From Verrucomicrobia bacterium S94 (GTDB lineage: Bacteria; Verrucomicrobiota; Kiritimatiellia; Kiritimatiellales; Pontiellaceae), in contig CP036201.1 in the NCBI GenBank assembly GCA_004299845.1, positions 2,914,001 to 2,978,000 of the forward strand: a stretch of 64,000 nucleotides of DNA, given 5' to 3'. The notes under the pieces were generated by a model. It was not told the DNA's origin, did not search any database, and saw only the letters and a program-made list of their open reading frames with translations. This document shows positions 5,655 through 40,853 of this stretch, piece by piece (the first letter of the stretch is position 1; each line of letters starts with the position of its first letter). A program made the position numbers and the translations under genes.

Positions 5655-5697
5655 CTGGGTAATGCACAATCAATCTACACCACGGAGGGAACCCGGA

Positions 5698-6120: not shown

Positions 6121-6132
6121 AGAAGGTTCAGC

Positions 6133-6915: not shown

Positions 6916-6998
6916 TGAACAACCTTCCGGCCCCACACAAAACCGGCTCTCTCGAAAACCCCCGCTCTCCGGGGAAGGATTTCCTGCTATAAAAAAAC

Positions 6999-7019
6999 GA
7001 CGGGTAATTTCTACCCGTC
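6999..7019. other. Perfect inverted repeat overlapping the module 2 enhancer
   Basis: GACGGGTA (6999-7006) and TACCCGTC (7012-7019) pair perfectly. A run of seven A precedes it, so on the minus strand it would resemble an intrinsic terminator. On the plus strand it separates module 1 from module 2. Confidence 0.5.
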
Positions 7020-7045
7020 CGGGGCAATTGTCTGCACTTTCCGCC
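7008..7045 (+). promoter_or_regulatory. Candidate enhancer (UAS) of module 2
   Basis: Second copy of the block at 5456-5493, with TTTCTACCCG, CCCG-N2-CGGG (7014-7023) and GTCTGCACTTTCCGCC. It lies about 155 bases upstream of the -24 element at 7181. Confidence 0.55.
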
Positions 7046-7178
7046 CCCACATCCACGCAAGCCCGCCACGCCGTTTTAAATATTTTAAATTCACAATCAT
7101 CTAACGGCCTAGAGAATACTGGAATTCCGCCCTCCCGCATGCCTTCCCCTCCCACCGGATGCCGGCAGTTTTACTGCG

Positions 7179-7196
7179 TTGGCACACCCGGTGCAT
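7179..7196 (+). promoter_or_regulatory. Sigma-54 promoter of module 2
   Basis: TTGGCACACCCGGTGCAT: GG 7181-7182, GC 7193-7194, ten bases between, nearly identical to the module 1 promoter. Transcription would start near 7206, 26 bases before the leader ORF. Confidence 0.87.
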
Positions 7197-7231
7197 TAGG
7201 GTAGTCAACCTAACAGCAAGGAGGTCGAAAC

Positions 7232-7417
7232 ATGGCTTTTCATTTTATGTCAATACTAGGGCAACGAACCAGAGAACGGCATCAGCTTTTTGCTGAACCA
7301 CACCTGATCGGCACACCCACACCCATTCCCCGGCTTTTCCCGATCCTGTGGCGCATGATCCGCATACACCGGCAGAAGCAACTGAGTCACAACAACACGA
7401 ACGGAGTACTGAAATGA
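7232..7417 (+). CDS. Short leader protein of module 2 (61 aa)
   Basis: Unrecognised 61-residue protein with a strong AAGGAGG (7218-7224). Its stop codon overlaps the start of the Rnk-like gene (ATGA at 7414-7417), so translation is probably coupled. It shares TPIPRLFP-x-L-x-R and surrounding positions with the N-terminal extension of module 3 (9410-9607); 11 of 15 residues match around this motif, and the two upstream parts can also be aligned (RERHQLFAE with QERKKLLAD). Conservation between two diverged modules supports a real protein rather than an accidental frame. Module 1 has no equivalent. Function unknown. Confidence 0.55.
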   Translation: MAFHFMSILGQRTRERHQLFAEPHLIGTPTPIPRLFPILWRMIRIHRQKQLSHNNTNGVLK

Positions 7418-7836
7418 AAGAACAAGCAATCATTATGACCTGGCCGGACCACGCGCGGCTCACCAAACTGCTCGAAGAGCATCGTATCCAGAATCCTCGT
7501 GCAGACCGCAAAGCCTTTGAAAAACTGGGTCGGGAACTGGCTCGAGCGCAACTGATGACCGCACAGGACATTCCCGCAAATATCATTACCATGAATTCCC
7601 AGGTACAGGTTTTCGATTTGGAACTCGGCGATGAATACACCTTCATACTCTCCTGGCCAGGTGAAGCTGATATATCCGAAAACCGCATCAACGTACTCGC
7701 CCCGTTGGGCATGGCCCTGCTCGGCAGCCGCGCTGGTCAGGAAATCGAATGGCCGCTTCCGGAGGGAAAATGCCGGTTGCGAATCGATAAAATCCTGTTT
7801 CAACCGGAAAACAATACAACATGCGAGACATGCTGA
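7414..7836 (+). CDS. Rnk/GreA-C-like protein, module 2
   Basis: A 140-residue paralogue of the protein at 5698, with the same helical N-terminus and FKBP-like GreA C-terminal domain (NVLAPLGMALLGSRAGQEIE). The ATG at 7414 overlaps the leader stop, so it is probably translated by coupling. The Usp-EIIA gene starts 13 bases after it behind AAGGAG. The protein ends ENNTTCETC; the module 1 copy ends ENNSACETC, a cysteine-pair tail that the module 3 copy lacks. Confidence 0.75.
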   Translation: MKEQAIIMTWPDHARLTKLLEEHRIQNPRADRKAFEKLGRELARAQLMTAQDIPANIITMNSQVQVFDLELGDEYTFILSWPGEADISENRINVLAPLGMALLGSRAGQEIEWPLPEGKCRLRIDKILFQPENNTTCETC

Positions 7837-7849
7837 AGGAGATGTAAAA

Positions 7850-9076
7850 ATGAATCACCAACCGATCCGGATGGCCGTACTGGCTGCATGCGGAACTGAA
7901 GAGGAAATGTTCGGGTATGCGGAACTCTTCGCACCCCGTAATGATGTCCGCCACCACCATGTGTTTATTCCGGGATTCGCCCTTCCGAAAGACGAAGAAC
8001 GGGCGATCACTGAAACCCGGCATCTCGCCGGAAACAGAAAACTCGATCTGATTATATCCGAGTGGCTGAACAACACCCGGGCTATGCAGGACCTGCTACA
8101 GCTCGCCCAGAAACGCAGGTTCCCGGTGGTTTTCGTGCGGACTGCACATGAACCGCAGATTAGCCGAATTGTGGTTGCAACGGGAGGCGGCCCAAACGTC
8201 TATGAGCAGATGTGGCTGGCGCGACAGACGGCAGCCAGGCTCAATGTTCCCATGGAGATCCTGCACTGGACTCCGGCATTGGATTCCGCCCCGCGCGATG
8301 GTCCCGAAGACACCGATCCGCTTGAAAAAATGTGCCTGCGCCTATTCGGCATGCAGGTGAATACAATTCACTGCTGCGGCCCTGATTTTACAGGCACGGT
8401 GGCCGATACGCTGCGTCCGGACGATCTGCTGGTGATAGGGGCTCCAAGTCCGTTACGGATGGTGGCCGACTTTTCAGACTCCCTGCCCGATCAACTGGCC
8501 AGGACGGTTCCGAATCCGATGATCCTGTTGTCGACCCCTTCGCCGAATCACACCAACCTGCGCCGTCTCCTGTGGGGCCGGCTGATCAAACCCCGGTTGC
8601 ATTCCCGCCCAAAAAAAGAAGTGTTGGAAGGCCTGATAGACAACCTTATACGCCATAACCAACTGCCGCCGGGAAGTAGAAAGGATATGCTCGAACGCGC
8701 ACTGCAACGCGAGCAGGCGTTCTCCACGGCTGTGGATTGCGAAACAGCCTTCCCTCACATTAAACTGCCGGGTTTCTTTGGCGTAGCAGGTACATTGGGG
8801 ATTTTCCCCGACGGCATCGACTTCGGCAGCGAAGACGATACGCCGACACGCTTTGTATACCTGCTCGTTACCCCCGAAGGATTTTGCGACGAATATCTTG
8901 CCATCCTCTCGAAAATATCCAGGCGAATGCTTGATCCTGCAGTCCGCAAAGCCCTGCTGATCAGCAAAACCGCAGCTGAGGCCGTTGAGATTCTTGAGCC
9001 GCACCAGGATCTTCCGCTCGAGTGCACTTTGTATAAACCGATCACTCACCGGCAACAGAAAGCCGCAGCGCTATAA
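7850..9076 (+). CDS. Usp-like protein fused to PTS EIIA-Ntr-type domain
   Basis: A 408-residue two-part protein. Residues 1-230 are Usp-like (LIISEWLNNTRAM, RIVVATGGGPN, DDLLVIGAPSPLR). Residues about 258-384 match the PTS EIIA type-2 (PtsN/EIIA-Ntr) fold: LIRHNQLPPGSRKDMLERAL, then ETAFPHIKLP with the phosphorylatable His303, and KISRRMLDPAVRKALL near the end. EIIA-Ntr proteins are phosphorylated by a PTS-Ntr chain and regulate nitrogen, potassium and sigma-54-linked functions. A Usp-EIIA fusion would let phosphorylation state and a nucleotide signal meet in one protein; that is inference. The start at 7850 has AAGGAG at 7836-7841. The reading frame is intact. Confidence 0.75.
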   Translation: MNHQPIRMAVLAACGTEEEMFGYAELFAPRNDVRHHHVFIPGFALPKDEERAITETRHLAGNRKLDLIISEWLNNTRAMQDLLQLAQKRRFPVVFVRTAHEPQISRIVVATGGGPNVYEQMWLARQTAARLNVPMEILHWTPALDSAPRDGPEDTDPLEKMCLRLFGMQVNTIHCCGPDFTGTVADTLRPDDLLVIGAPSPLRMVADFSDSLPDQLARTVPNPMILLSTPSPNHTNLRRLLWGRLIKPRLHSRPKKEVLEGLIDNLIRHNQLPPGSRKDMLERALQREQAFSTAVDCETAFPHIKLPGFFGVAGTLGIFPDGIDFGSEDDTPTRFVYLLVTPEGFCDEYLAILSKISRRMLDPAVRKALLISKTAAEAVEILEPHQDLPLECTLYKPITHRQQKAAAL

Positions 9077-9356
9077 CGCTCTGCCGCAGCAGTCCCGGAC
9101 TATGGAGAATGTTTATCGTTTCATTGAGCATGATTTCCGGTGGACCTGCCGTGGTGCGGGTACCGGGGAATATTTCCCCGGATGCGGAATCAGACCGCAC
9201 TCTTTCCTACAGCGCACCCGGTATCTGCCGGATGCAGCTATGGCATATACAAAAATTTCCTTCACTTCATAATTCATCGCTTCCGTTGGTGATATACCTA
9301 TTTTCCCGTCATTAATATTGCTCCGTTCCTCTCGAAAACCATCCGGTTTCCCCCCG
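9077..9356. other. Intergenic region with palindrome and candidate module 3 enhancer
   Basis: Holds a perfect inverted repeat CCGGGGAA-TAT-TTCCCCGG at 9163-9181, followed by GACCGCACTCTTTCC (9193-9207). The latter resembles GTCTGCACTTTCC of the module 1 and 2 blocks and sits about 160 bases upstream of the -24 element at 9359, the same geometry. No gene is seen. Confidence 0.4.
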
Positions 9357-9374
9357 TTGGCATATCTGGTGCAT
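9357..9374 (+). promoter_or_regulatory. Sigma-54 promoter of module 3
   Basis: TTGGCATATCTGGTGCAT: GG 9359-9360, GC 9371-9372, ten bases between. Transcription would start near 9384, 26 bases before the TTG at 9410, the same distance as in module 2. Confidence 0.83.
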
Positions 9375-9409
9375 AGAGAACCCGACCTCGATAGCAAGGA
9401 GATTGGAAT

Positions 9410-10033
9410 TTGAGAACAAAACGGACTGCGGGTCTGCTGAAGCTGGTGCAGGAACGCAAGAAGCTTCTGGCTGATACCTATATGGTCGTCAGCAGCTCAG
9501 CCACCCCTATTCCCCGGCTTTTCCCGACGTTGCGGCGTATTATGCGGAAAGCGCCGGGAAATAAACGAGAATTACCACTGAACCCAAGAAAGAAGGAATA
9601 CAGAAATATGAAAGAATCATCCATTATCATGACCTGGCCCGACCACGCTCATCTTACTGAACTGGTCGAGAAGGAACGCAGTGCTGCTTCCCCCGGTACC
9701 GATCACGACGCCATAGAAAAACTGGCCAGGGAACTGGCCAGGGCTCAACTGGTGGCCGGATGCGATATCCCTCCTGATATTGTCACCATGAACTCCCAGG
9801 TCAGAGTTTCTGATCTGGATCTGGGCGATGAATACACCTTCACGCTCTCCTGGCCCGACCGGGCAAATGTCTCGGAAAACCGGATCAATGTACTTGCCCC
9901 GCTCGGAATGGCGTTACTGGGCAGTCGCGTTGGACAGGATATTAAGTGGCCGCTGCCCCAGGGAACCTGTCACCTGCATGTGGAGGAGATCCTGTTTCAG
10001 CCGGAAAACAATATGGTCAGAAGCGCAGGCTGA
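9410..10033 (+). CDS. Leader sequence fused in frame to Rnk/GreA-C-like protein, module 3
   Basis: One open frame codes for a 66-residue leader-like part (with TPIPRLFPTLRRIMR, as in the module 2 leader) followed directly by a Rnk-like protein beginning at Met67 (9608). The upstream start is TTG at 9410 with AAGGAG at 9396-9401; the internal ATG at 9608 has its own AAGGAA. Either a 207-residue fusion, a 141-residue protein from 9608, or both are made. The Rnk part has the usual GreA C-terminal domain (NVLAPLGMALLGSRVGQDI). Compared with module 2, loss of the leader stop has joined the two proteins, which argues that they work together. Confidence 0.65.
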   Translation: MRTKRTAGLLKLVQERKKLLADTYMVVSSSATPIPRLFPTLRRIMRKAPGNKRELPLNPRKKEYRNMKESSIIMTWPDHAHLTELVEKERSAASPGTDHDAIEKLARELARAQLVAGCDIPPDIVTMNSQVRVSDLDLGDEYTFTLSWPDRANVSENRINVLAPLGMALLGSRVGQDIKWPLPQGTCHLHVEEILFQPENNMVRSAG

Positions 10034-10036
10034 AAT

Positions 10037-11265
10037 ATGTCGGGAATAACATCAAAGCAGACCCATACAGCCGTTCTGGCAACGCCCGGAATGGAAGAAA
10101 AAATGCTCCGGTATGCACGCCTGCTGAGCGACAACCGGAACGCTGATCTTCACCACATTCCTATCCCGGCGATTGCCGTTGCTCAGGACGAAGCCGTCGC
10201 CGTTGCCGAAGTCCGGAACCTCTTCTCCTCCACGAAGCTGAATCTGCTCCTTTCCGAATGGATGAAAAGCCCCCGGGCCATGCAGAATATGATTCAACTC
10301 ACCCGCAGACGCGGCGTAACCGGCATTTTTTTCCGCACAGGAAACGGACGTAAAATCGGCAGGATCGTGGTGGCAGTCGGCGGAGGCCCGAATCTCTATG
10401 AGCAGCTGTGGCTGGCTAATGTAGTGGCCAAACACCACCGGCTTCCGGTTGCGGTCCTCAACTGGGCCGACGGAATCAGAAATACATTCAGCACATCCAC
10501 GCCCGCAATAGCTGACCTCGAAAAAATAAGCGTACAGCAGCTCGGTATGGAGATCGAAATCCTGGAATACTCAGGCCCTTCGCTGGTCGATGCCGTACTC
10601 AAACATCTCCGCCCCGACGATCTCCTGGTTATCGGGGCCCCAGTCCGTTGCGGCTGGCCACCGATTTTACCGGATCACTGCCCGACCAGCTTGAAAAACA
10701 GACGGATCATCCACTGATCATGCTGGCCCGCGCCCCGCAGGAACAAAACAGTCTGCACCGCCTGTTCTGGGGACAGCTGGCCTGTCCGGACTTAAAGGTG
10801 CGAAACAAGGAAGAGGCCCTGGAAAAGCTGGTGACAAACCTGATCCGCCATAATCAGCTTCCGCCCGGAAAGAAAAGATCCATTCTGGAACGCGCCCTCA
10901 AACGCGAACAGATTTCATCCACTGCGGTGGATTGTGAAACCGCCTTTCCCCATGTTGCGCTGCCGGGATTCTACGGCGTGGCCGGAAGTATGGCCATCTG
11001 TCCGGACGGGGTTGATTTCGGGAGTTCCGGCGGCAAGCCGTCCCGCTTCCTTTTCCTGTTGATTACGCCGGAAGGCTATTGCAGTGAATACCTGGCCATC
11101 CTTTCAAAAATATCAAAACGGATGATCGATCCGGCTGTCCGTGCAGCATTGCTGAAGGCGTCATCGCAGCAGGATATCCTCAACATTCTGGAACCTGCTC
11201 CGGATGAACGGTTCGCAATCAACGCATCGCCCCGACAGCGACAGAAACAGCATGCAAAGCCATGA
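10037..11265 (+). pseudogene. Usp-EIIA fusion, module 3, with one-base frameshift
   Basis: Paralogue of the gene at 7850. The first frame (10037-10717) covers the Usp-like part to DDLLVIGAP, then goes out of frame. The second frame resumes at once with SPLRLATDFTGSLPDQLE and runs through an intact EIIA-type domain (ETAFPHVALPG with the active His) to 11265. Adding one C to the run at 10638-10641 restores the whole protein of about 410 residues. Both halves remain well conserved and free of other damage, so this may be a sequencing error in a C run instead of a true pseudogene. Confidence 0.75.
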
Positions 11266-28635: not shown

Positions 28636-29999
28636 GGGGTGCGGAAATGTATGCACCTCTCGTAAGTTGTTGAATTTATGTGGGATTGGCTGGGTATGAG
28701 CAAGAAGAGGTTTGGCGGTAGGTTTAATGTGTTTTGGGTGATTTACATGCTCTTGGCGCACCGTTTTATGCCCAAACATGATGGTCAAATCCAGTTGCTG
28801 TTGTATCAGGTTAAGATGCTCCGAGATCGCATTGATGAGCCGCGAATTATCCCATCTTCGGACGAGCGTGCAGAATTGCTCCGTTTGGGTGCCAAAATTG
28901 ATCACGATATTGCGGAGGTAATGTGCGTGGTGAAGCCGGGAACCTACCGCCGCTGGCCGAGCAAAAAGGCGGATAAATCGAAAAAGGAAATGATTGTTGG
29001 TCGACCGGAAACCGCCGAAGAAACCATTGCACTGATCATTCGTTTGGCTACTGAAAACATCGCGTGGGGCTACAAACGTATTTTGGGCGAACTGAAGAAG
29101 CTGGGCGTTGATATTGGGCTGACGACCATTCGTGATATTTTGAAGCGAGCGGGGCATAAACCATCGCCCCAGAAAACAAAGAGCAAGCCCGTGGTTCCGT
29201 GGTCGGACTTTATCGGTGCGCACATGGAAACGTTGATTGCCTGCGATTACTTTACGAAACCCATCTACACGCTTTTCGGCAAGTTCGACGCCTACGTGCT
29301 GGTCTTTATCCACCTCGGCAGTCGCCGTGTTTTCATGACGCCACCCACGTTTCATCCCAATGATGACTGGCTTAAGATTCAGATTCGCAGTGCGGCGATG
29401 TGGCTCGATGGAATCGGAGTTAAACCCACCTGCCTGATCCACGACGGAGACAAGAAATTCGGGAAGATGTTTAAAGCATTCTGGAAGTCGGAAGGTGTGC
29501 GATGTTTGAAGATCCCTCCGCGCTCGCCGCAGGCCAATGCCTTTTGCGAGTGCTATATTGGGACGTACAAACATCAGTGTTTGAATAGTTTCTTTTGCCT
29601 GAGCCTCGATCAGCTCGATTACATCAACCGAAAATGGGTGACGTACTACAACAACGAGAGACCGCATCAGGGAAAAGACATCGGGAATAACATTCTGCGC
29701 CCCGACTTTACGCCCGTCAGCGAAGGCGAAATCGTGCGCTACGAAGCTCTCGGCGGCGTACTCGCGTGGTACGAACGCGCCGCTTAAACTCTGCCCGATC
29801 ATCAGCAAACCCGAACCTCCCGTTCCAATCGAACGGCTGATTCGCCATGCCCAGATCGCATAAATCCACCTATTTTCGTGACTCTCATTGTCAAATTTCG
29901 CTCTCAACTCTCTTCGTTGACCTACTCGATCTCCCTTAATTCGTTCATTTCACCCTGATTTTTCAGTCATTTTTGGCGTGGATGAATTTCCGCACCCTC
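28636..29999 (+). mobile_element. Complete insertion sequence with terminal inverted repeats
   Basis: The left end GGGGTGCGGAAATGTATGCA (from 28636) matches the reverse complement of the right end (about 29979-29999): GGGTGCGGAAAT-N2-AT-N-CAC is common to both. A single integrase-type transposase gene fills the element. I do not see a clear target duplication. It separates the HAD region from the Rhs region. Confidence 0.75.
28678..29787 (+). CDS. Transposase with integrase (rve/DDE) core
   Basis: A 369-residue transposase of the IS481/IS3-like integrase-core group. The helix-turn-helix part includes WGYKRILGELKKLGVDIG and TTIRDILKRAGH. The DDE catalytic residues lie in IACDYFTKP (Asp190), LIHDGDKKF and the Glu of ANAFCECYIG; YYNNERPHQG is the usual end of the rve domain. 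The frame is intact, so the element may be active. The true start may be the Met at 28696 (MSKKRF). A long reverse frame over the same bases is a shadow. Confidence 0.85.
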   Translation: MWDWLGMSKKRFGGRFNVFWVIYMLLAHRFMPKHDGQIQLLLYQVKMLRDRIDEPRIIPSSDERAELLRLGAKIDHDIAEVMCVVKPGTYRRWPSKKADKSKKEMIVGRPETAEETIALIIRLATENIAWGYKRILGELKKLGVDIGLTTIRDILKRAGHKPSPQKTKSKPVVPWSDFIGAHMETLIACDYFTKPIYTLFGKFDAYVLVFIHLGSRRVFMTPPTFHPNDDWLKIQIRSAAMWLDGIGVKPTCLIHDGDKKFGKMFKAFWKSEGVRCLKIPPRSPQANAFCECYIGTYKHQCLNSFFCLSLDQLDYINRKWVTYYNNERPHQGKDIGNNILRPDFTPVSEGEIVRYEALGGVLAWYERAA

Positions 30000-30200
30000 C
30001 ACCCTGCTATCAAACCGTTTGTTCAATGTGCAGACCTGACCCTGCTATCCACGGAGCTATGCGGCATAACCAAAACAGATCATTGAGTGGTTTAAGACCC
30101 GAGTCCACTTCTGTCTGGCGACGGTTCCAAAGGCCCGCCGGAGGAAAGGAGCAGTGAGCGCCTGCCATGGCGCTCTCTGCGATAGCGGCTCCACATTAAC
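30000..30200. other. Intergenic region
   Basis: Nothing convincing between the right end of the IS and the small membrane gene; only short frames. Confidence 0.5.
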
Positions 30201-30470
30201 TCATCCGCTTTTTTCCCGTATGAAAATTAGCCAACCCACAATCATCAAAAGAATAGAAAGCAATATACAGCATCCCCACCAAACCTGATCGGCTTCAGAT
30301 GCCCCATAATTTTTTGTGCCTTTAGAGGGAAGAAATTGCCACAACTTAAAAAGCTTAACGCATACCCCCGCTAGTACAGGAATACGTAACAAGACAGGGC
30401 GCAGAGCAAACGATAACAAACTACTTAGAGAGCAGGATAGCACTATGTTCAAAATCCATTTTTTATCCAT
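30201..30470 (-). CDS. Small membrane protein, candidate immunity protein of the orphan Rhs tip
   Basis: An 89-residue protein with a hydrophobic N-terminus (WILNIVLSCSLSSLLSFALR) and a second span (WGCCILLSILLMIVGWLIF). No family recognised. It starts 12 bases after the stop of the Rhs tip at 30483, on the same strand, the standard place for an immunity gene. It is richer in A and T than the surrounding Rhs core, as tip-immunity pairs often are. The immunity role is inferred from position only. Confidence 0.5.
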   Translation of the reverse strand: MDKKWILNIVLSCSLSSLLSFALRPVLLRIPVLAGVCVKLFKLWQFLPSKGTKNYGASEADQVWWGCCILLSILLMIVGWLIFIREKSG

Positions 30471-30482
30471 ATCGTCACTCCC

Positions 30483-32290
30483 TTATGGCAACAAGGCGCT
30501 TGCTGTTGGAACAATAACGTTAATTACATCCTCTGACATCGCATCACCTTGCAAAATATTTTCGTATAATTTCCAGTAGCCTGTTGTTGCGTCCACAACA
30601 TCTTTTCCCTTAACCACCTTTGCGCCGAGTGGTGATAAAATAACAGACTCAGAAACACCCTTGGAAAAGTATGCCACGGGCTCCACTGCACTAATTGCAA
30701 GATATGCAAACGTACCGCCCGCACCCCCTTCTTTCAAAACCTGCTCTTTACCCTCACGGAAAGCTATGGGCATATTCTCACCAAGCTCTTGAAAGCCATA
30801 AACAATGCTTCCGACTGCTAATGTTGGCAAAAACTTTGAACTAAGCGGATTAGCCATATTCCATGCTCCGTAGCCATCCGTCCAATCTGTATCCAAGGCC
30901 CAGTCTTCCAGGGAGTCGTAATCCCATCCATTTACCAGTGAAAATGAATCCGCGCACAACCCGTACGGATCGACGAAGAAGAGCGGATTCATATTCGCCC
31001 ACATGTAGACGTTGACTCCGCCATCGATTCCGAGGGGGTCGGGACTGATGAAACGTTTCAAAGAACAGGAATACGCTCTATGAAGGGTTAAATGTAATTC
31101 GGTGTCAATGTCATAGTACACGCCGTAGCCACCCAGCCACCGGAACGGAGTATCTGTTAACCCGATGTGCGTTGCGGTTCCGTACGGCATGTACGCAAAC
31201 TGGTCGGTGACTGCGCCGGATTCGTCCGTCAGCGCGAGGGTGCTGCCGAGTTCGTCGGCGTGATAATAATAGGTATCGCCGTTTGCTTCGATGTGGCAGA
31301 GCAGTTGACTGCCATTCCAGACATAGTAGCGGGTGATGTTTCCCTGAGCATCTGTTTCAGCGAGCGGGCGTTTCAGTCCGTCCACATAATCGATGACGAA
31401 GTAGTTGGTGCCGGAGTTGTGGACGCGGCCGATTCGCGCGCCGCTTGCATCATATACATATTTCGTGTGATTCGTGTCTTTCGTGGTTTCAGTCAAACGA
31501 TTGTTGTAGTCGTACGAGAAGAACTCCGGATCGGAATCCGGCGAACCGATGGATGCCAGCCCGCCGTTGTCGTTATAGCCATACGCGATGTCGGTCCAAT
31601 TGGTGCCCTGCTGGACTCGTTCGGAGATGAGCTGATCGGCATCGTTGTGCGTTTTGATGGAGCGATGTGTCGTCGAAATCGTCGGCGAAATACCGGCATT
31701 GATGCATTCGGTGGTTTTGAAGCCGAGCGCGTTACGATGGATTTCCCGATCCACAAAATTTCCGTGCTTGATGGAGATCATATGATTTTCGGCATCGTAA
31801 CCAAAGGAGGAGTTCACGCCGCTGGGGTATAAGATGCCTGTCAGGCGGTTGGCTGTGTCGTAGCCGAAGGAAATGATTTCCGTGTTATTCGAGTAGGTCG
31901 TGGCAACCGATTCCAGCCGGTTATCGGCACCGTAATTGTAAGAAACAGATAAACCTCCCGGGTAAACAATGCTGGTGCGGTTGCCGTTCAGATCGTACTG
32001 ATTTTCCACCACAGAACACACTGAGGCACAGAGCTGCGTACTGAATACGAGCCGGTTCATTTCATCATAGCCGAAGGTGCATGAGGCATGCGGGGACGCT
32101 TTCCATTCGCATCGTGATCAAACGCGGCGACTTCCACACCCTGATTCGTGATCGCCGTCAACCGGTTCAGCGCATCATATCTGTATTCCGTCAACGCGCC
32201 GGCGACATCTATGCGGGTATTGAGATTGCCTGCTCTTTCAAACTCTATACGCGGCTTCCTTTCCATAAGTGATTTATTACGAACCAATTC
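30483..32290 (-). pseudogene. Orphan Rhs C-terminal cassette (core end plus variable tip)
   Basis: From about 32290 down to 30483 the complement encodes YD repeats and the complete Rhs-associated core ending RFISPDPLGIDGGVNVYMWANMNPLFFVDPYGL, then a unique tip of about 155 residues beginning CADSFSLVNGWDYDSLEDW. The core is nearly identical to that of the full-length gene at 33046-39048. A 13-base deletion near 32092, relative to the intact copy, puts the upstream piece (32057-32287) out of frame with the rest; no signal peptide or promoter is present. This is the classic displaced Rhs tip, kept for recombination. The tip has a hydrophobic segment (GGTFAYLAISAVEPVAYF), and its activity is unknown. 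Confidence 0.8.
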
Positions 32291-32609
32291 TCAGCAAACA
32301 ATCAGGGAATATTAAAATATCGGACCGACCCCTTTATACCGGAGAATATTAAAATATCGGACCGACCCCTTTATGGTATTGAGATTGCCTGCTCTTTCAA
32401 ACTCTATACGCGGCTTCCTTTCCATAAGTGATTTATTACGAACCAATTCTCAGCAAACAATCAGGGAATATTAAAATATCGGACCGACCCCTTTATTTGC
32501 CTGCTCCTTCAAACTCTATACGCGGCTTCCTTTCCATATGTGATTTATTCCGAACCAATTATCAGCAAACAATCGGAGAATATTAAAATATCGGACCGAC
32601 CCCTTTATT
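32219..32609. repeat. Tandem ~120-base repeat, three units, plus extra copies of its end
   Basis: Units at about 32219-32337, 32377-32496 and 32496-32609 each run from TTGCCTGCTCTTTCAAACTC through TTTCCATAAGTGATTTATT to ATATCGGACCGACCCCTTTA. The terminal 30 bases occur four times (ending near 32337, 32374, 32496, 32609). The repeat contains the 5' end of the orphan Rhs fragment and lies exactly between the two Rhs cassettes, so it was probably duplicated during tip exchange. Confidence 0.75.
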
Positions 32610-33065
32610 GGCCGGCTCGTTGCTCCATAATCCTTCATTTATAAGAACCTGATTCAGATAAACGCAGGAACCTTTTTGGATGTTTAAAAAACCAATATAT
32701 ACGTTATGTGCTCCTACAGACTCCCATCCATTTGGTTCTCGGCCCAGAACTTCCTCCGGAATGCCCCAGATGAATACATCATATTTCATATCTCCATTGG
32801 GCGAAACAAAAACCTCATAATCACCAATCAATTTTGAAATTCTCATTCGAGACTCATCGCTACGCCCCTCAATATTTCGCCCGGCAAGCTTAATCACATC
32901 TCCATTGGCAAGTTTAAGTGAAGGACCAGGCAGCACTTTATCCACTTGTTGCAACACATTGGCATTTTCTCTAAGCCTTGAATCCAAGGCAACCGAACCA
33001 AGAGCAAACAAGATAAATAAAAATGCCATCAGAACCGTATATTTATTATTTATTAATTTCGACAT
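32583..33065 (-). CDS. Candidate immunity protein of the full-length Rhs protein
   Basis: A 160-residue protein starting MSKLINNKYTVLMAFLFILFALGSVAL, a signal anchor or signal peptide, followed by a soluble part with no recognised domain. It overlaps the last 20 bases of the Rhs gene on the same strand, the standard toxin-immunity arrangement. The last residues (NKGVGPIF) come from the tandem repeat, so its original C-terminus may have been replaced. If the tip is a periplasm-active hydrolase, an exported or anchored immunity protein would fit; that is inference. Confidence 0.55.
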   Translation of the reverse strand: MSKLINNKYTVLMAFLFILFALGSVALDSRLRENANVLQQVDKVLPGPSLKLANGDVIKLAGRNIEGRSDESRMRISKLIGDYEVFVSPNGDMKYDVFIWGIPEEVLGREPNGWESVGAHNVYIGFLNIQKGSCVYLNQVLINEGLWSNEPANKGVGPIF

Positions 33066-36000
33066 TCTGCTTTTCCCTCTGCTCATTAATCCATTTTTCC
33101 AACTGATTAGGCGTTGAAAGGCCAAAGATGTTCTTGAGGTCGTCACCAAAATTAATTCCGGCATAGGCTGCGTAAAGCTGTACATAATCAACACAGTTGA
33201 AGTGTTTACTCCAAACAACTTGATCTTCTATCGCGATGAGTCCATCAGCCAATTTCTGGACTTTATCATACTGCTCTTGGGTAATAGGAATCCTCAGTGT
33301 TGCATCGGCAATTGAGGTTGGCGAGTCTTGAAAACCATTTCCCTGATCCCCCGAAGTTTTGTGTATTGAAGCAGGAACTCCATCTGAAAACCAAGCACTC
33401 AGCTTACCAATACCCCCCTTAGGATAAAGTCCATAACTATTTCGCTCACCGGCATCATTTTCCAACGTAAACCATCCATGCCCCATATCTCCGAAATCTG
33501 CATTATCTGCGTGAAGGTAAAAAGCTGCTAAGCCATACGGATCAACGAAGAATAGCGGATTCATATTGGCCCACATGTAGATGTTGACGCCGCCGTCAAT
33601 ACCGAGCGGGTCGGGACCGATGAAACGTTTCAAAGAACAGGAATACGCTCTATGAAGGGTTAAATGCAATTCGGTGTCAATGTCATAGTACACGCCGTAG
33701 CCACCCAGCCACTGGAACGGAGCATCCGTTGATCCGGTGCGCGTGGCAGCTCCGTAAGGCATGTACGCAAACTGGTCCGTTACCGCGCCGGACTCGTCCG
33801 TCAGCGCGAGCGTGCTGCCGAGTTCGTCCTGGTGATAGCAATAGGCATCGCCGTTGGCTTCGATATGAGCCAGCAGCCGCATGCCGGCCCAGATGTAGTA
33901 CCGCGTGACGGAGCCGGCTGAATCGGTTTCAGCGAGCGGGCGTTTCAGGCCGTCGGTGTAGTCGATGATGAAGTAGTTCGTGGTGACGGCGGTAGGCGAG
34001 ACGCCTGCGGTACAGATCCGACCGATGCGTGCGCCGGTAGCGTCGTATAAATACTCAACGGAGCAGGATGTTCCGTCTGCATTCACGATCCGATTATCAT
34101 AGTCATATCCGAAGCGCTGTGTTTCTGAGCCCTCTGTGGTGATATTCGTTAAGCACCCGTTGTCGGAATAGGAATAAGCAACGTCGGTCCAGTTGGTGCC
34201 CTGCTGAACTCGTTCGAAGATGAGCTGGTCGGCGTCGTTGTGCGTTTTGATTCTGCGCGCGGTTTCCTGGACGGCGGATTTAATTCCTGCATTGATACAT
34301 TCGGTGGTTTTGAAGCCGAGCGTGTTGCGATGGATTTCCCGATCCACAAAATCTCCATGCTGAATCGAGGTGATGCGGCTTTCTGCATCGTAACCAAAGG
34401 TGGAATGCACACCGTTCGGGTAATCCATGCCGGTCAACCGATTGGCGGAATCATAATTGAACACAAAGCTTTCCGTGTTTTCAGCGTATTCCGTGGTCAC
34501 GCTCTCCAGCCGATTGTCTGCTCCGTAATGATACCCGACCGATAATCCACCCGGATAGACGATGTTCGTGCGGTTCCCGTTCAGATCGTACTGATTTTCC
34601 ACCACAGAACACACTGAGGCACAGAGCTGCGTACTGAATACGAGCCGGTTCATTTCATCATAGCCGAAGGTGCATGAGGCATGCGGGGACGCATGCTCTA
34701 TGATATTTCCATTCGCATCGTGATCAAACGCGGCGACTTCCACACCCTGATTCGTGATCGCCGTCAACCGGTTCAGCGCATCATATCCGTATTCCGTTAA
34801 CACCCCGGCGGCATCTATGCGTGAATCCAGATTACCCACGGCATCATACGTGAATGCGGTCACCTTCCCGATGGCATTGGTGATCGCGGTGACGCGCCCC
34901 TGGGCATCGACCCCGAAATAAACGGGCTTACCCTCGGCATTGCGGAAAACGGTTCGGTTCCCGAGGTCATCATAACCGTATTCTTCGTTCACTCCGGAGG
35001 GCCGGAAGGAGTTCTTCACCCGGCCGAGTGCGTCAAATTCAGTTTTCCACTCTTTTGAAGCCGCATCGACCCGGTTGGTAACACGACCCAGCCCATCCAT
35101 CTGATATTCTTCATAACCGATGGGGCGGAAACGGTGCGTCATCCGGCCGAGTGAATCATAGACAAAGCGGCTTTCGATTTGAAGACCGGAAGGATCGACT
35201 ACGGAGTTAGTGAGGTTTCCGAGGGTATCAAACTGATTCGTGACCACGGAATACATCGAAGACACGGAAACCGGCCGTCCGGCGGAATCAAGGGTGTTGG
35301 TGACGCAGCTGCCTTCGGGGTCACAGCTCATCACAAGGCGGTCCGCCTCGTCGTACAGGTTTGTGGAGCTTCCTCCGTCGGGGAACAGGGTTCCTGCCGG
35401 TTTATAAGCAGGCGTCCAGTAAAATATGCTCGTCTTCCCCCGGGCATCGGTTGAGGTTCTGAGCAGCCCATTGCCGTAGTAGGCTTTAGAGATGACCGTC
35501 TGGTCAGCGGTACCCAGCGCATTCGTTACCGCAATGAGCTGCCTGAGATCATCATAACCGTATGCGGTGGTTTTTCCGCCGACGGTCAGGGTTTTCAGAT
35601 CGCCTTTTGCGTTAAAGACCCGGCTGACTGTTCCGGCATCGGTTGAAGTAACCATTTGTGCATTACCGTAGGAATCGAAATCAGAATAGACCGTAATCCT
35701 TTTTCCGTTTCCTTCCGAGAGCTGACGAAGCAGTCCCTGTGCGGTGTAGGAGTAATCTGTAACAGCCTCTTCCTCGGAACCTTTGGCTGAAACCGTATAA
35801 TCAACGGCATGCTCATCCGTGTAGGCATATTCAGTGACAAGCTGTTCAGCTGTACCGACGGCATTCGTCACCAGCCGCAGATGGTGCTCCGAATCATAGG
35901 CATATGCTGTGATCGTCTGTTCAGCGGTTCCCTCCGCATGAACCTGCATCAGCAGGTTGTGATCGGTGTCGTAAACAAAACGATTGGTTACACCCCGCTC

Positions 36001-39000
36001 ATTGACCGTGCCGGTAATATGTCCCTGCCCGTCAAAGAAGGTGTAGGTTCGGGAACCATCAGCCTTTTCTTCGCTCCAGGTGCGGCCGGTGCTGTCGAAA
36101 TAATATTTGGTCTGATTCCCTAGCGGATCTTCCTCGATACTGCAGTTTCCGATAAAACGGTTCAGCCAGCGGTGTCCACTTGCGGAAATCTGATTCGTGA
36201 CCTGACCGACGGAATTATACGCATTCCGGACGAGAGTAATATTTTCGGGATCCCTTACCCAGGTGATCTGATGCGCACTGTCGTATCCCATGCTCCAGTC
36301 AAAACCGGCGGCATCAACTACATTGGTTAAGTTTTCATCTGAATCATACTGATAATAAACGGTGCGGACCGGTTCCGCGTTATCGCTGACCGAGGTCAGC
36401 AGCCCGTCCGTATAGCTGAAGGTCATTTCAGGACCGAAACTGCTCTGCACGGAGTTAAGATTTGTGCCTCCGGAATATTCGAAAGTAAGCGTATTCCCGT
36501 AAGGATCTTCAATGGTGTCAATCAGGCCGTTGGTGTTGAATGCGTATGTGTTTCCATGACGCTCCTGCATCACATAAACCCCATTGGTTTCCGTCAGCGA
36601 CACGGTCATTCCTTCGGGAGGTGTGAACGAACCATCCGGCTGTTTTACAAACGTAGCCGCCTTCTGACCGGTGTAAACCGTCACAGCCGTTCCCGCCAGC
36701 CGGTCCACTGCCCATTCGGCAATCAGGCTGGCCACAGTCCATGAACGGGCCGTGTCTTCACTTTGAAGAATATCCAGCATCGCCTGATACGCCACGGCGG
36801 CGCCGGCAATATCTTCGAGAGAGCGGTCCATCAGACTGTCGGGCGAAGTATGCTCCTGAACATACATGTTAAAAGAATGATTCCACCCGTATCCCAGTGC
36901 TGTTTTTGCATCAGCAGAACCCGAACTGTAATTCCGCTTCATAACCAGAGGCATCGGGCCGTCCATGGTCAGATCGGTTTTTTCCAGCAGATAGTTTCCT
37001 GATGCCATGTCGACCGGATCAGCGCCTTTCGGGGTCCGGATATTCGCAGCCTCTTTAAAGTCGGCCAGATTCTGGGCATTGATAAGGGTCGGCCCGATCC
37101 GGGAGGACCGGTCTACAGCCCCTCCGTTGGTTTTATCAAGCGCGGCGGTAATGCCGCCGTTTGTAGATACCCCCAGATAAATAATTCCGGTCCATTGGCC
37201 GACACTGACCGGAGTATCCGGGAGAATCAGACATTCGGTATCAGCGGTCAGCAATGCTTCAAAAGAATCCAGTTCATCGGAGGTATAGCCGCTCAGCTGC
37301 GCTTCGACAGAGGCAAAATTATCTGCAGTGACACGGAATACGGTTCCGCCTTTCCGGCAGTGCTCGGCAATGCCCCGCACACTCGATACAGCCAGCCAGC
37401 CCGGCTGATTCTGTTCCCAGATACCGTGTTCGAGCGCACTGCTGATCAGCCCCTGAGCCGATGTACGTTCAATTTTGGTCTCATGAGTATACAGATTGTC
37501 AGCTCCATGCTGAACATCACAGAGTGCATTAGGATAGTCCGACTGGATAAATACTCCGGCTGCGTAAACCTGATGAGAGATTTTTCCATACAGCCCTTCG
37601 CTCAACCGACGGAAAAGGCCCTGAAGATGGAAATAGTCTGTACCCAGCTGCTGCAGTCCAAGCAGAATGGGATCTCCGGAACCCGCCCCGGAAAGACATT
37701 CCGCCAGCTCTTCAGCACAGGCCGCAGAAGCGGCTTTATTCCCAAGATCATTAAACTGAATCGGGAAAGCGTACTGCGCCCCCAAAACGCCCGTGTAGGT
37801 TTTTAAACTGTCATAACCGGTCAGCGTATACGAAGAATTGCTGTAAGTAAAAATCGGAAACACGATGCTGATCGGCACCACATAGCGACCTCCGTCCATC
37901 CCGCCGATACTCCCTTCCACCCAGACTTCATCCCCCAGAAGAACCCGTCCATAACCGGAATCATTAATTTCAATATAAACCGTCCGCGTGCCCAGATCCG
38001 GCAATGAAATATAATGCATCTCACCTTCCGCATAAATTCCCAACTGCTGACTGCCTGTCGGCAGATCATCCTTATTCTGATATGCTGTGGACGAATAAAC
38101 GGTAAAACGGGGAGGGTTCAAACCCGACTCCTGCACAATGTGCTTATCTCCGAAAAAATCCGCCGGCGAACCGTTCGGAAGCTGAGACCTGAATTCAGCA
38201 CATAAATTCGTAGTCAACCCTGTCAGATAGGCATACAGACCATCCTCGTTAAAACCTGAAAAACTGTGATTAGAAACAACACCCCCCACTTCGGCATAAA
38301 GATTACTGCGCACATAAGAAGAAAGTGCGTCTATTCCGACCCCGTCTGTATATTCATACGGTTTGAAAAAGGTATCCAGCTCGATCACCTCACTGCCATT
38401 GGTCAGCGTCACCCAGGTATAAGCAATATTAACCAGTGTATCCCCATCATAATAATACACGGGCAGCTGTTCCGCACTCAATATGGCAAATGCATCATCA
38501 ACACTGTCGACATTCAGCATAGTGCTTAGGTTGCACCCTTCATTATCAAATACAGGCAGAATAACGGCCCCGAAATTATAGGATGCGCCATACCCCGAAG
38601 CTTCCAGCAGCGCAATCAGCAGCGAGGCCTGATCGCAGTCATTTCCCGCACCGTCCTGAATTACCCGCTCCGGTGAGCGTTTGTTTCCTACATAAAATTC
38701 TGAATGAATCTGATTTCGTACAAACTCATAAATATTAGTGGGATTATATTCGAGCGCATAAGCCAGTTCTTCAATGACTGAAGAAGCATTTGAAAACGCC
38801 TCAGAGGAAGCCGACCGGACAGATGATAAAGAAGAGCCATCGACCCTCCCTGCATCCGGGGACTCGATATCAAACTCAGCAAGAGAAAGGGCAGAAACAA
38901 AATTCGACACTGAAAACGCTACAGAATCCTCCCCCTCGAATGTTGGAGAAACAGCATCTGCCGGAGTGAATATCAATGTATTTCCGAATGAACAGAATGA

Positions 39001-39048
39001 CATAGCTGTCGAAATTAAAAAGGTAACAACCTGCTTTTTTTTCATCAT
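33046..39048 (-). CDS. Giant Rhs-repeat protein with transglutaminase-like N-terminus and putative cysteine-hydrolase tip
   Basis: A 2000-residue exported polymorphic toxin. A signal peptide (MKKKQVVTFLISTAMSFCSFG) is followed by a transglutaminase/papain-like domain at about 85-170 (NDCDQASLLIALLEASG, Cys near 138), a domain beginning DPVDMASGNYLLEKTDL that opens the Rhs shell (DUF6531-like), and about 25 YD repeats. The Rhs core ends WANMNPLFFVDPYGL near residue 1840. The last 160 residues are the tip: GHGWFTLEND and KHFNCVDYVQLYAAY (Cys about 1952), a His/Cys pattern like NlpC/P60 or other papain-fold hydrolases. The core autocleavage motif lies at DPLGIDG/DPYGL. It may act in contact-dependent killing. 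Activity of the tip is a guess. Confidence 0.85.
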   Translation of the reverse strand: MMKKKQVVTFLISTAMSFCSFGNTLIFTPADAVSPTFEGEDSVAFSVSNFVSALSLAEFDIESPDAGRVDGSSLSSVRSASSEAFSNASSVIEELAYALEYNPTNIYEFVRNQIHSEFYVGNKRSPERVIQDGAGNDCDQASLLIALLEASGYGASYNFGAVILPVFDNEGCNLSTMLNVDSVDDAFAILSAEQLPVYYYDGDTLVNIAYTWVTLTNGSEVIELDTFFKPYEYTDGVGIDALSSYVRSNLYAEVGGVVSNHSFSGFNEDGLYAYLTGLTTNLCAEFRSQLPNGSPADFFGDKHIVQESGLNPPRFTVYSSTAYQNKDDLPTGSQQLGIYAEGEMHYISLPDLGTRTVYIEINDSGYGRVLLGDEVWVEGSIGGMDGGRYVVPISIVFPIFTYSNSSYTLTGYDSLKTYTGVLGAQYAFPIQFNDLGNKAASAACAEELAECLSGAGSGDPILLGLQQLGTDYFHLQGLFRRLSEGLYGKISHQVYAAGVFIQSDYPNALCDVQHGADNLYTHETKIERTSAQGLISSALEHGIWEQNQPGWLAVSSVRGIAEHCRKGGTVFRVTADNFASVEAQLSGYTSDELDSFEALLTADTECLILPDTPVSVGQWTGIIYLGVSTNGGITAALDKTNGGAVDRSSRIGPTLINAQNLADFKEAANIRTPKGADPVDMASGNYLLEKTDLTMDGPMPLVMKRNYSSGSADAKTALGYGWNHSFNMYVQEHTSPDSLMDRSLEDIAGAAVAYQAMLDILQSEDTARSWTVASLIAEWAVDRLAGTAVTVYTGQKAATFVKQPDGSFTPPEGMTVSLTETNGVYVMQERHGNTYAFNTNGLIDTIEDPYGNTLTFEYSGGTNLNSVQSSFGPEMTFSYTDGLLTSVSDNAEPVRTVYYQYDSDENLTNVVDAAGFDWSMGYDSAHQITWVRDPENITLVRNAYNSVGQVTNQISASGHRWLNRFIGNCSIEEDPLGNQTKYYFDSTGRTWSEEKADGSRTYTFFDGQGHITGTVNERGVTNRFVYDTDHNLLMQVHAEGTAEQTITAYAYDSEHHLRLVTNAVGTAEQLVTEYAYTDEHAVDYTVSAKGSEEEAVTDYSYTAQGLLRQLSEGNGKRITVYSDFDSYGNAQMVTSTDAGTVSRVFNAKGDLKTLTVGGKTTAYGYDDLRQLIAVTNALGTADQTVISKAYYGNGLLRTSTDARGKTSIFYWTPAYKPAGTLFPDGGSSTNLYDEADRLVMSCDPEGSCVTNTLDSAGRPVSVSSMYSVVTNQFDTLGNLTNSVVDPSGLQIESRFVYDSLGRMTHRFRPIGYEEYQMDGLGRVTNRVDAASKEWKTEFDALGRVKNSFRPSGVNEEYGYDDLGNRTVFRNAEGKPVYFGVDAQGRVTAITNAIGKVTAFTYDAVGNLDSRIDAAGVLTEYGYDALNRLTAITNQGVEVAAFDHDANGNIIEHASPHASCTFGYDEMNRLVFSTQLCASVCSVVENQYDLNGNRTNIVYPGGLSVGYHYGADNRLESVTTEYAENTESFVFNYDSANRLTGMDYPNGVHSTFGYDAESRITSIQHGDFVDREIHRNTLGFKTTECINAGIKSAVQETARRIKTHNDADQLIFERVQQGTNWTDVAYSYSDNGCLTNITTEGSETQRFGYDYDNRIVNADGTSCSVEYLYDATGARIGRICTAGVSPTAVTTNYFIIDYTDGLKRPLAETDSAGSVTRYYIWAGMRLLAHIEANGDAYCYHQDELGSTLALTDESGAVTDQFAYMPYGAATRTGSTDAPFQWLGGYGVYYDIDTELHLTLHRAYSCSLKRFIGPDPLGIDGGVNIYMWANMNPLFFVDPYGLAAFYLHADNADFGDMGHGWFTLENDAGERNSYGLYPKGGIGKLSAWFSDGVPASIHKTSGDQGNGFQDSPTSIADATLRIPITQEQYDKVQKLADGLIAIEDQVVWSKHFNCVDYVQLYAAYAGINFGDDLKNIFGLSTPNQLEKWINEQREKQNVEINK

Positions 39049-39064
39049 AAAACCCCAGAACCAA

Positions 39065-40276
39065 CTACTTCACAGAAATTTCTTCCGTAATATTATGTGC
39101 ATCACTCAGGAACGTCCGCTGCGCAGTATCGGAACCGACATAAACGTCGGTTAACCTATCGTCTTCATCGTAATAGAAACGAACTGTTGTAACGGTTCCT
39201 ACAGCGTTTCCTGCATCCGATACCGTGGGATCGGTTCCACCGGTCAACTCCTCAAGATTACTGAATCCGTCATTATCAACATCCCCCAACGCACCGTCAT
39301 CGCCCTCATTAGACAGTGGATCAAAACCGTATTCGGACTCCCAGCCATCATCAAGACCATCGCCGTCGCTGTCTCTATTACAGGGATCCGTACCGAGTGA
39401 AATTTCTACAGCATCCAACAAACGGTCATTATCGTCATCCGTATCAGCAATCAGCGGCGGATTACTTCCGGAAACGCCGGTCAGCTCATCCGGCATACCG
39501 TCGCCGTCTGTATCAATGCCTGCTGCGGGATCGAGCGGAAAGGCATCCGGACCGGGAATCAGATGTTCCCATCCTTCAGGAACGGTCGGCCCGTCACATA
39601 TTCCGTCCAGATCGGTATCCGGATGCTTCGGACTCGAGGCGCCTCCATATGGCGTACCGATGTACTCTTCGAGATTACTGAGTCCATCACCGTCGAAATC
39701 CTCATCGGCATCGGAAATCCCGTTGCCTTCCGGACGGCTCAGCGTATCGGTATCCACCACATCCGGACTTGTTCCGAGCAATCCCGTTTCATAACCGTCG
39801 CTTAATCCGTCACCATCGGAATCATCTGCAACTCCGGCATACAGATAAAACTGATTCATTGATGGATTTCGTCCCGGTCCTTCATCCCAGGTATACCAGT
39901 CGATTATTCCATTATCTGTTCCCGGAAATCCGCGTTCGGCCAGCGTAAAGCGGTGACCATCATACTGTGATGCAAAGCCCCCATCCGGATGTCCGATGCT
40001 CAGACTCTGTGTAAAATAGAATTCATAAACGTGACCGGGAACAGTGCCGTTCAGCCGCCAGCAACAGCTTCCGCTATTCGTTGAAATGCCAAACAGCATA
40101 CCGCCCAGATACAGCACGGGAGTATCCTCAGCCTCTGCAGCCGATCCCGCCACGTCATCGACCCATCCTCCGGAATCCGTTCCGGCCATAGGTACGACAA
40201 TGCAGCCTATCATCCCCGCGGTTCCGAAAATCAGACGCAAATATTTCCACCCTGGAAATCCGCTTAATTTATTCAT
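39065..40276 (-). CDS. Secreted protein with thrombospondin type 3-like calcium repeats
   Basis: A 403-residue exported protein. After a hydrophobic signal (YLRLIFGTAGMIGCIVVPMAG) come about 120 residues of unknown fold and then seven aspartate-rich loops (DSDGDGLSD, DFDGDGLSN, DTDLDGICD, DTDGDGMPD, DSDGDGLDD, DVDNDGFSN and a divergent one), the TSP3/EF-hand-like calcium-binding repeats common in PVC and Bacteroidetes surface proteins. The C-terminus contains FYYDEDDRLTDVYVG, which is YD-repeat-like. It precedes the giant Rhs gene by 16 bases and is probably cotranscribed, so it may help export or display of the Rhs protein. Start at 40276 behind AAGGGA. Confidence 0.72.
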   Translation of the reverse strand: MNKLSGFPGWKYLRLIFGTAGMIGCIVVPMAGTDSGGWVDDVAGSAAEAEDTPVLYLGGMLFGISTNSGSCCWRLNGTVPGHVYEFYFTQSLSIGHPDGGFASQYDGHRFTLAERGFPGTDNGIIDWYTWDEGPGRNPSMNQFYLYAGVADDSDGDGLSDGYETGLLGTSPDVVDTDTLSRPEGNGISDADEDFDGDGLSNLEEYIGTPYGGASSPKHPDTDLDGICDGPTVPEGWEHLIPGPDAFPLDPAAGIDTDGDGMPDELTGVSGSNPPLIADTDDDNDRLLDAVEISLGTDPCNRDSDGDGLDDGWESEYGFDPLSNEGDDGALGDVDNDGFSNLEELTGGTDPTVSDAGNAVGTVTTVRFYYDEDDRLTDVYVGSDTAQRTFLSDAHNITEEISVK

Positions 40277-40853
40277 TCCCTTCCCCTGATTATCATTTAA
40301 CCCCGAAAAAAATCCTGCAATCAACCGACAGATTTACAGGAAAACACAGTAGCACATTATGCTGCATCGGAATTCCCCTCACATAATTGAAGAGCACGTA
40401 TCTTTCCGGAAAAAAAACATCGTAACAAATAAACAATTGAACTTATTTTTAAAACATATTATTTATTGAACTTTCACCGAAATTAAGTGTCGGCATTCCG
40501 CTAAACGGAAAACGCGGCCTGCTTCGCAACAGAAAATACCCACCCATCCCCTGAATCACCTCTGATTCAGAAATAAACACAGTTGCCACAGCCGCAGATT
40601 CGAAAGCCGCACCCCAAGGCTTTAGAATCACATCAGATCGTGGAGAAACCGATTTCCCGAAGAGCGAGAAATGAAGAAACCGAAACCTCTTTCAACCAGT
40701 CAGACTGGAAATTCGATATACGACAGTGTGACAATCTCATCCCCTCTGATGCCAGGTCCCCTCCAGGCTCTCCACCTGGTCCGATTAACACATACGGATC
40801 CATACCACCACCCGCTTAAATCAGAACCCCTCCCGATACATTAACCATCAGTA
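40277..40853. other. Intergenic region
   Basis: About 580 bases, AT-rich in the first half, presumably holding the promoter of the calcium-repeat/Rhs operon (reading left). No clear gene or promoter sequence could be picked. Confidence 0.5.

What the first reader, a model, noticed from the sequence alone, without database searches (positions are those of the whole stretch)
30201..39048. Rhs tip exchange caught in the act: full Rhs gene plus orphan tip with near-identical core
The Rhs core of the 2000-residue protein (about 33530-34850) is repeated at 30960-32290, but after DPYGL the two have unrelated tips, each followed on the same strand by a different small candidate immunity gene. The orphan has no signal peptide and a 13-base deletion. 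A 120-base tandem repeat sits at the junction. This matches Rhs tip displacement known from enterobacteria, here in an exported Rhs protein with a transglutaminase-like N-terminal domain and no visible VgrG or type VI genes.
Basis: partly seen in the sequence, partly recalled or inferred. Interest (0 to 1): 0.6.

Follow-up and report, generated by a model that had tools for sequence, protein, structure and literature searches.

The report
Spare toxin tip bordered by transposon
A bacterium carries a large exported toxin gene followed by a spare toxin ending with its own likely antidote, and the seam between them is built from pieces of a small jumping gene that turns up beside such toxin modules in many unrelated bacteria, which suggests it may help shuffle them.

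Summary
A 2000-aa exported Rhs protein (33046-39048, -) is followed on the same strand by an orphan Rhs core with an unrelated tip; each tip has its own small gene. The cores are not near-identical: they are 78.5% identical overall, with a 198-bp run of perfect identity in a ~75% background, interrupted by the orphan's 13-bp deletion. That indicates gene conversion. The same Rhs gene in three other genomes of the genus carries other, unrelated tips, so this is a genuine polymorphic toxin.

The "120-base tandem repeat" was misread. It is three nested copies of the left end of a RAYT/TIRYT transposon (HUH/Y1 transposase, GGGGTC... ends), joined directly to the orphan core. In 13 genomes of the class, 18 of 94 Y1 transposase genes lie within 3 kb of an Rhs core (0.88 expected), mostly downstream on the same strand. 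Several orphan cores start exactly at a TIRYT end, one transposase clade is strongly Rhs-associated, and the pairing recurs in other phyla.

Polymorphic Rhs toxins with orphan tips are known; I found no report of the TIRYT link. Whether TIRYTs move the modules or merely settle there is unproven.

The parts
33046..39048 (-). Full-length exported Rhs/YD-repeat protein, 2000 aa (signal peptide, weak transglutaminase-like segment aa 103-160, DUF6531, RHS repeats, Rhs_assc_core aa 1762-1840)
   Evidence: orthologues with other tips in G416, G267, G185
33049..33528 (-). Tip 1, 160 aa after DPYGL; contains GHGWF...NCVDYV, possibly a permuted papain-like Cys/His fold (inference)
   Evidence: no Pfam, PDB-sequence or plasmid match; one distant relative on another Rhs core (G330); single-sequence AF2 model pLDDT 54 with no Foldseek match
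32583..33065 (-). Candidate immunity gene 1 (membrane-anchored small protein); its last codons and stop lie in the TIRYT left end
   Evidence: stop 21 bp inside the first TIR; no family match
32216..32612 (-). Array of TIRYT (RAYT-B type) left ends: three copies of AATAAAGGGGTCGGTCCGATATTTTAATATT...ATGGAAAGGAAGCCGCGTATAGAGTTTGA plus one short copy (32338-32374)
   Evidence: 82-89% identical to the left end of intact RAYT-B at G000:C1:625444-625779
32225..32240 (-). Junction between the truncated TIRYT coding start and the orphan Rhs core, in frame
   Evidence: (ORF 32057-32287 reads MERKPRIEFERAGN-LNTRIDVAGALTEYRYD)
30958..32232 (-). Orphan Rhs core (about 1.27 kb), frameshifted by a 13-bp deletion at about 32099/32100
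31984..32181 (-). 198-bp tract identical to main gene 34577-34787 (gene-conversion tract)
30483..30957 (-). Tip 2 (orphan), 157 aa, unrelated to tip 1
   Evidence: no family or plasmid match
30201..30470 (-). Candidate immunity gene 2, 89-aa membrane protein
   Evidence: no family above cut-off
30028..30042 (+). Remnant of a RAYT-A type right end (GTGCAGACCTGACCC), on the strand opposite to the orphan
   Evidence: exact match; 0.10 expected with up to 2 mismatches

Best explanation
The locus is a polymorphic Rhs toxin gene with one orphan tip/immunity module behind it, and TIRYT (RAYT subclass 2.1) transposon ends form the module borders. Shown: a TIRYT left end sits in the last codons of the main immunity gene, nested copies of that end follow, and the last copy is fused to a 5'-truncated second Rhs core with its own tip and small gene. 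The two cores have exchanged DNA. Inferred: the TIRYT transposase, a single-strand HUH/Y1 enzyme, cuts and joins at its GGGGTC ends. In doing so it adds partial copies of its ends and joins them to pieces of Rhs genes, producing same-oriented [TIRYT]-[core-tip-immunity]-[TIRYT] units that can be copied elsewhere. Homologous recombination in the shared core can then swap a spare tip into the single exported full-length gene. The tips are inferred to be toxins delivered to neighbouring cells by a route without T6SS, and the small genes to be their immunity genes.
For: Repeat identified as TIRYT left ends. In the same genome a 3030-bp core-tip-immunity-RAYT-A segment exists twice, 2.3 Mb apart, at 99.67% identity; its right border lies at the RAYT-A right end, and in the orphan copy its left border lies next to RAYT-A left-end fragments. 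18 of 94 Y1_Tnp matches in 13 genomes lie within 3 kb of an Rhs core against 0.88 expected, 12 of 18 downstream on the same strand. Orphan 5' ends flush with same-strand TIRYT pieces: 6 of 59 against 1.27 expected within the same loci, P 0.001, not counting the window orphan, which was too short for that search; three of the six follow one 250-bp MITE in G079. A supported clade of 8 transposases from 5 genomes contains only Rhs-adjacent copies. The pairing recurs in Verrucomicrobia, Lentisphaerae, Omnitrophota, Geobacter and Gammaproteobacteria, with the nearest core upstream on the same strand in all 8 loci. Gene-conversion tract. Different tips in the genus.
Against: An unrelated transposase domain (rve_3) is also enriched near Rhs cores, 8 of 70 against 0.87 expected, so Rhs loci attract or tolerate insertions generally. 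Most orphans (53 of 59) have no detectable flush TIRYT piece, and orphan modules without TIRYT exist in the genus, so TIRYTs are not required. Rhs-adjacent RAYTs outside the one clade are scattered on the tree, and in the wider tree that clade includes Verrucomicrobiales copies away from Rhs. At least one TIRYT looks inserted into an Rhs tip rather than bordering it (L098). No transposition event was seen, and toxicity and immunity are untested.
Confidence: 0.55

Rival explanations
1. Passive landing: Rhs arrays are long, dispensable, rearrangement-prone regions where TIRYTs, like other insertion sequences, accumulate and are tolerated; orphan modules arise by ordinary homologous or illegitimate recombination and the TIRYT pieces are bystanders.
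For: rve_3 transposases are also about 9-fold enriched near Rhs cores; most orphans lack a flush TIRYT piece; a TIRYT lies inside an Rhs tip in L098; orphan modules occur without TIRYT in the genus.
Against: Y1 enrichment is stronger (20-fold) with an orientation bias that rve_3 lacks; borders coincide with TIRYT ends more often than random points in the same loci; a clade of Rhs-adjacent transposases exists; the copied 3-kb unit ends at the TIRYT right end.
Confidence: 0.35
2. Classical Rhs tip displacement only: a new tip recombined into the main gene and pushed the old tip downstream as an orphan; the junction repeat is irrelevant debris.
For: Shared core with a 198-bp conversion tract; alternative tips in the genus; orphan rhs-CT/rhsI modules described in enterobacteria (PMC3150448).
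Against: Does not explain why the orphan core begins at a TIRYT fragment here, at G000:C1:2897 kb, at 626 kb and in other genomes.
Confidence: 0.1

Closest known systems
Rhs polymorphic toxins with orphan rhs-CT/rhsI modules (Poole et al. 2011, PMC3150448)
   Same: Full-length gene with conserved core and DPxGL boundary, variable tip, small gene behind it, orphan core-tip-small-gene module downstream without its own export signal
   Different: No VgrG or T6SS; signal-peptide Rhs in what appears to be Kiritimatiellota (inferred from the kin returned); module border made of TIRYT ends
H-repeat (H-rpt) elements in E. coli Rhs tips (PMC3032704)
   Same: An IS-like unit associated with Rhs C-terminal tips; no transposition observed
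   Different: A different transposase (DDE type, from own knowledge); TIRYT is a Y1/HUH single-strand enzyme with GGGGTC inverted repeats
TIRYT / TIRtron elements (PMC3733652; RAYT subclass 2.1 in PMC6006769)
   Same: Y1_Tnp domain, HUH motif, terminal inverted repeats fitting GGGGWSAS, ends found in clusters
   Different: PMC3733652 has no mention of Rhs or toxins and no paper found joins the two; here the elements border Rhs toxin modules
RAYT/REP elements of E. coli and Pseudomonas
   Same: Same transposase superfamily
   Different: The ends seen here are TIRs, not the GTAG-tagged palindromes of REPs

Membership tests
Rhs polymorphic toxin (full-length) | YD/RHS repeats and an Rhs-associated core domain | tested here: met
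   PF05593 E 2.7e-59 and TIGR03696 54 bits over cut-off 32.5
Rhs polymorphic toxin (full-length) | Conserved core followed by a tip that differs between relatives, with a small gene behind | tested here: met
   Three orthologues in the genus carry three other unrelated tips and small genes; tip 1 found in only 2 of 387 genomes of the phylum
Rhs polymorphic toxin (full-length) | Delivery by T6SS (VgrG/PAAR-type; defines only the T6SS-linked branch) | tested here: not met
   No VipA in the genome; the protein has a signal peptide, so another export route is likely (inference)
Rhs polymorphic toxin (full-length) | Toxic tip neutralised by the cognate small protein | not testable with these tools
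   Needs expression assays
Orphan rhs-CT/rhsI module | Partial core, unrelated tip, own small gene, downstream of a full gene, no export signal | tested here: met
TIRYT (RAYT subclass 2.1) | Y1_Tnp domain with HUH motif in the intact copies | tested here: met
   PF01797 over cut-off in RAYT-A and RAYT-B; invariant NHxH in the alignment
TIRYT (RAYT subclass 2.1) | Terminal inverted repeats fitting GGGGWSAS | tested here: met
   GGGGTCAGATCTGCAC / GTGCAGACCTGACCCC for RAYT-A, GGGGTCAGGTCTTGACAT / ATGTCAAGACCTGACCCC in L035 and others; motif from PMC3733652. RAYT-B ends are GGGGTCGG and fit only approximately
TIRYT (RAYT subclass 2.1) | Complete element in the window | tested here: not met
   Only left-end pieces and one 15-bp right-end remnant remain
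TIRYT (RAYT subclass 2.1) | Demonstrated transposition | not testable with these tools
   Only a 99.67% identical 3-kb duplication with TIRYT borders
H-rpt of E. coli Rhs | DDE-type H-repeat transposase | tested here: not met
   The transposase at the borders is Y1_Tnp

The most novel reading that the evidence does not exclude
A lineage of TIRYT single-strand transposases is specialised for Rhs loci and acts as a cassette system: it borders, copies and reorders [core-tip-immunity] modules within and between genomes of several phyla, feeding new toxin tips to full-length Rhs genes by core recombination.
Probability: 0.3. Interest if true: 0.85.

Novelty: new variant of a known kind. Interest (0 to 1): 0.6.

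Why it matters
How Rhs tip modules arise, move and end up behind full-length genes is an old open question; the E. coli H-repeat never showed movement. A recurring link to a compact HUH transposase with defined ends gives a concrete, testable candidate, and would give TIRYTs, whose role is unknown, a biological context in bacterial competition.

Tried and rejected
Near-identical cores: rejected, mosaic. Tandem repeat as a recombination site of Rhs itself: rejected, it is transposon sequence. Plasmid relatives of the locus or tips: none. Viral-contig relatives of tip 1: none. Tip domains by Pfam, PDB sequence, AF2 and Foldseek: nothing usable. Exclusively Rhs-bound transposase clade: true in the sampled class, but a wider tree adds Verrucomicrobiales copies and one uncultured genome away from Rhs, so 'specialised' is weakened to 'strongly associated'. 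GGGGWSAS motif density at orphan 5' ends alone is a weak signal (6 of 59, P 0.036). Literature: no paper in the held open-access library joins RAYT or TIRYT with Rhs; subscription papers could not be searched.

Full report
WHAT IS THERE. On the minus strand of the window lies, in order: a 2000-aa Rhs gene (33046-39048) with signal peptide, DUF6531, RHS repeats and an Rhs-associated core; its 160-aa tip; a small gene (32583-33065); a repeat array (32216-32612); a second, 5'-truncated Rhs core (30958-32232) with an unrelated 157-aa tip; and a second small gene (30201-30470). The window lies at 2.914-2.978 Mb of a single-contig 4.1-Mb genome.

THE TWO CORES. They align over 1317 bp at 78.5%. The identity is a mosaic: one stretch of 198 compared positions is perfect (orphan 31984-32181, main 34577-34787), while the rest is 75% identical. 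Perfect identity over that length at all codon positions in a 75% background is best read as gene conversion. The 13-bp deletion lies inside this tract, so it is younger than the exchange or arose with it; it breaks the orphan frame. The main gene is a real polymorphic toxin gene by anatomy: orthologues in three other genomes of the genus (G416, G267, G185) keep the N-terminal part and core and carry three other unrelated tips with other small genes, and tip 1 occurs in only 2 of 387 genomes of the phylum. No T6SS sheath gene is present in the genome.

THE JUNCTION REPEAT. Read on the minus strand, each unit is AATAAAGGGGTCGGTCCGATATTTTAATATT...ATGGAAAGGAAGCCGCGTATAGAGTTTGA, that is, a transposon left end followed by the first codons of a Y1/RAYT transposase. 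It is 82-89% identical to the left end of an intact transposase gene elsewhere in the genome. The intact copies carry PF01797 above cut-off, the NHxH (HUH) motif and terminal inverted repeats that embed the stop codon, for example GGGGTCAGATCTGCAC and GTGCAGACCTGACCCC for RAYT-A. These fit the TIRYT/TIRtron class with the GGGGWSAS motif (PMC3733652), which PMC6006769 equates with its RAYT subclass 2.1. The left end has cut into the 3' end of the main immunity gene and supplies its stop codon; the same is seen with a different TIRYT family at the second Rhs locus of this genome and in G023. Behind the orphan's small gene lies a 15-bp exact remnant of a RAYT-A right end.

THE SAME ANATOMY ELSEWHERE IN THE GENOME. 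The genome has only five Y1_Tnp matches; three adjoin Rhs genes. At 614-633 kb (L009) a 2066-aa Rhs gene is followed by its small gene, RAYT-A, RAYT-B and an orphan core with a DUF4329/JAB-like tip. At 2.895 Mb (L010) a 3030-bp copy of the core-tip-immunity-RAYT-A segment (99.67% identical) sits between RAYT-A left-end fragments and a duplicated RAYT-A right end. The RAYT/core joint there shares only TGC, which points to illegitimate joining.

SURVEY. In 13 genomes of the class chosen by contig number (60 or fewer) and presence of both families, 18 of 94 Y1 matches lie within 3 kb of an Rhs core (0.88 expected; Poisson P 7e-18, not corrected for near-duplicate copies); 12 of 18 are downstream on the same strand. 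A control domain, rve_3, is also enriched (8 of 70, 0.87 expected) but not with that orientation. Of 59 orphan cores, 6 have their 5' end within 100 bp of a same-strand TIRYT piece against 1.27 expected for random points in the same loci (P 0.001); the window orphan was missed by that protein search and would be a seventh. In G079 three orphan cores follow one 250-bp internally deleted TIRYT (MITE) with both ends, and two of them share the same joint. In G038 and G010 the core begins directly after the RAYT right end...CTGACCCC|core or ...GTGACCCC|core.

TREE. Among 36 RAYT-type transposases of these genomes plus G010, one clade (support 99/98) holds eight copies from five genomes, all beside Rhs, and none of the 21 copies found away from Rhs. 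The G010 member was fetched because it lay near Rhs, so it adds some selection. In a wider tree with 80 loci from other species, the association is still clustered (14 changes versus 22.2 in shuffles, none of 500 as low), but the clade gains Verrucomicrobiales and one uncultured genome without Rhs nearby. Eight of those 80 loci carry an Rhs core within 6 kb, from at least five phyla, with the nearest core upstream on the same strand in all eight; two of them are one 7.7-kb sequence.

MECHANISM. Shown: TIRYT ends at module borders, nested partial ends, a copied unit, gene conversion, tip variety. Inferred: TIRYT single-strand cutting and joining creates or moves modules; core recombination swaps tips. 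The main rival is passive insertion in tolerant loci; the enrichment of an unrelated transposase and the many TIRYT-free orphans keep it alive.

NOVELTY. Rhs toxins, orphan modules and TIRYTs are each known. An IS-like unit with Rhs tips is known in E. coli (H-rpt; PMC3032704), with another transposase and no observed movement. I found no open-access paper that joins TIRYT or RAYT with Rhs, so the link appears new, with the caveat that subscription journals were not searched.

Noticed in passing
L036 5777-7324 (-): One open reading frame joins an Rhs core end to a complete RAYT protein (about 515 aa).
   Followed up: partly
L009 11856-12083, L048 4700-4886 and 5904-6060, L010 3348-3772 and 6795-7111, L040 9905-10108: TIRYTs carry nested partial copies anchored at their left or right ends, each with a precise outer end and a variable inner break, as if abortive copying were repeated.
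   Followed up: partly
L098 and L100 1-7669: A 7.7-kb stretch with an Rhs gene and a TIRYT inside what looks like a second tip is 99.6% identical between a Rheinheimera genome and a Paraglaciecola MAG: recent transfer or a binning error.
   Followed up: partly
window 28678-29787 (+): IS481/IS3-like transposase (rve_3) next to the orphan module.
   Followed up: no
window 39065-40324 (-): Secreted-looking protein with TSP3 repeats directly upstream of the Rhs gene, possibly in the same operon.
   Followed up: no
window 5697-10416: Diverged direct repeats of about 1 kb (67-68% identity).
   Followed up: no
L009 3003-9203 (+): Second full Rhs protein with teneurin-like TTR, NHL and YD-shell domains.
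   Followed up: no
L010 7305-7882 (+): RelB/RelE-like toxin-antitoxin pair beside the copied Rhs-TIRYT unit (by eye, not tested).
   Followed up: no
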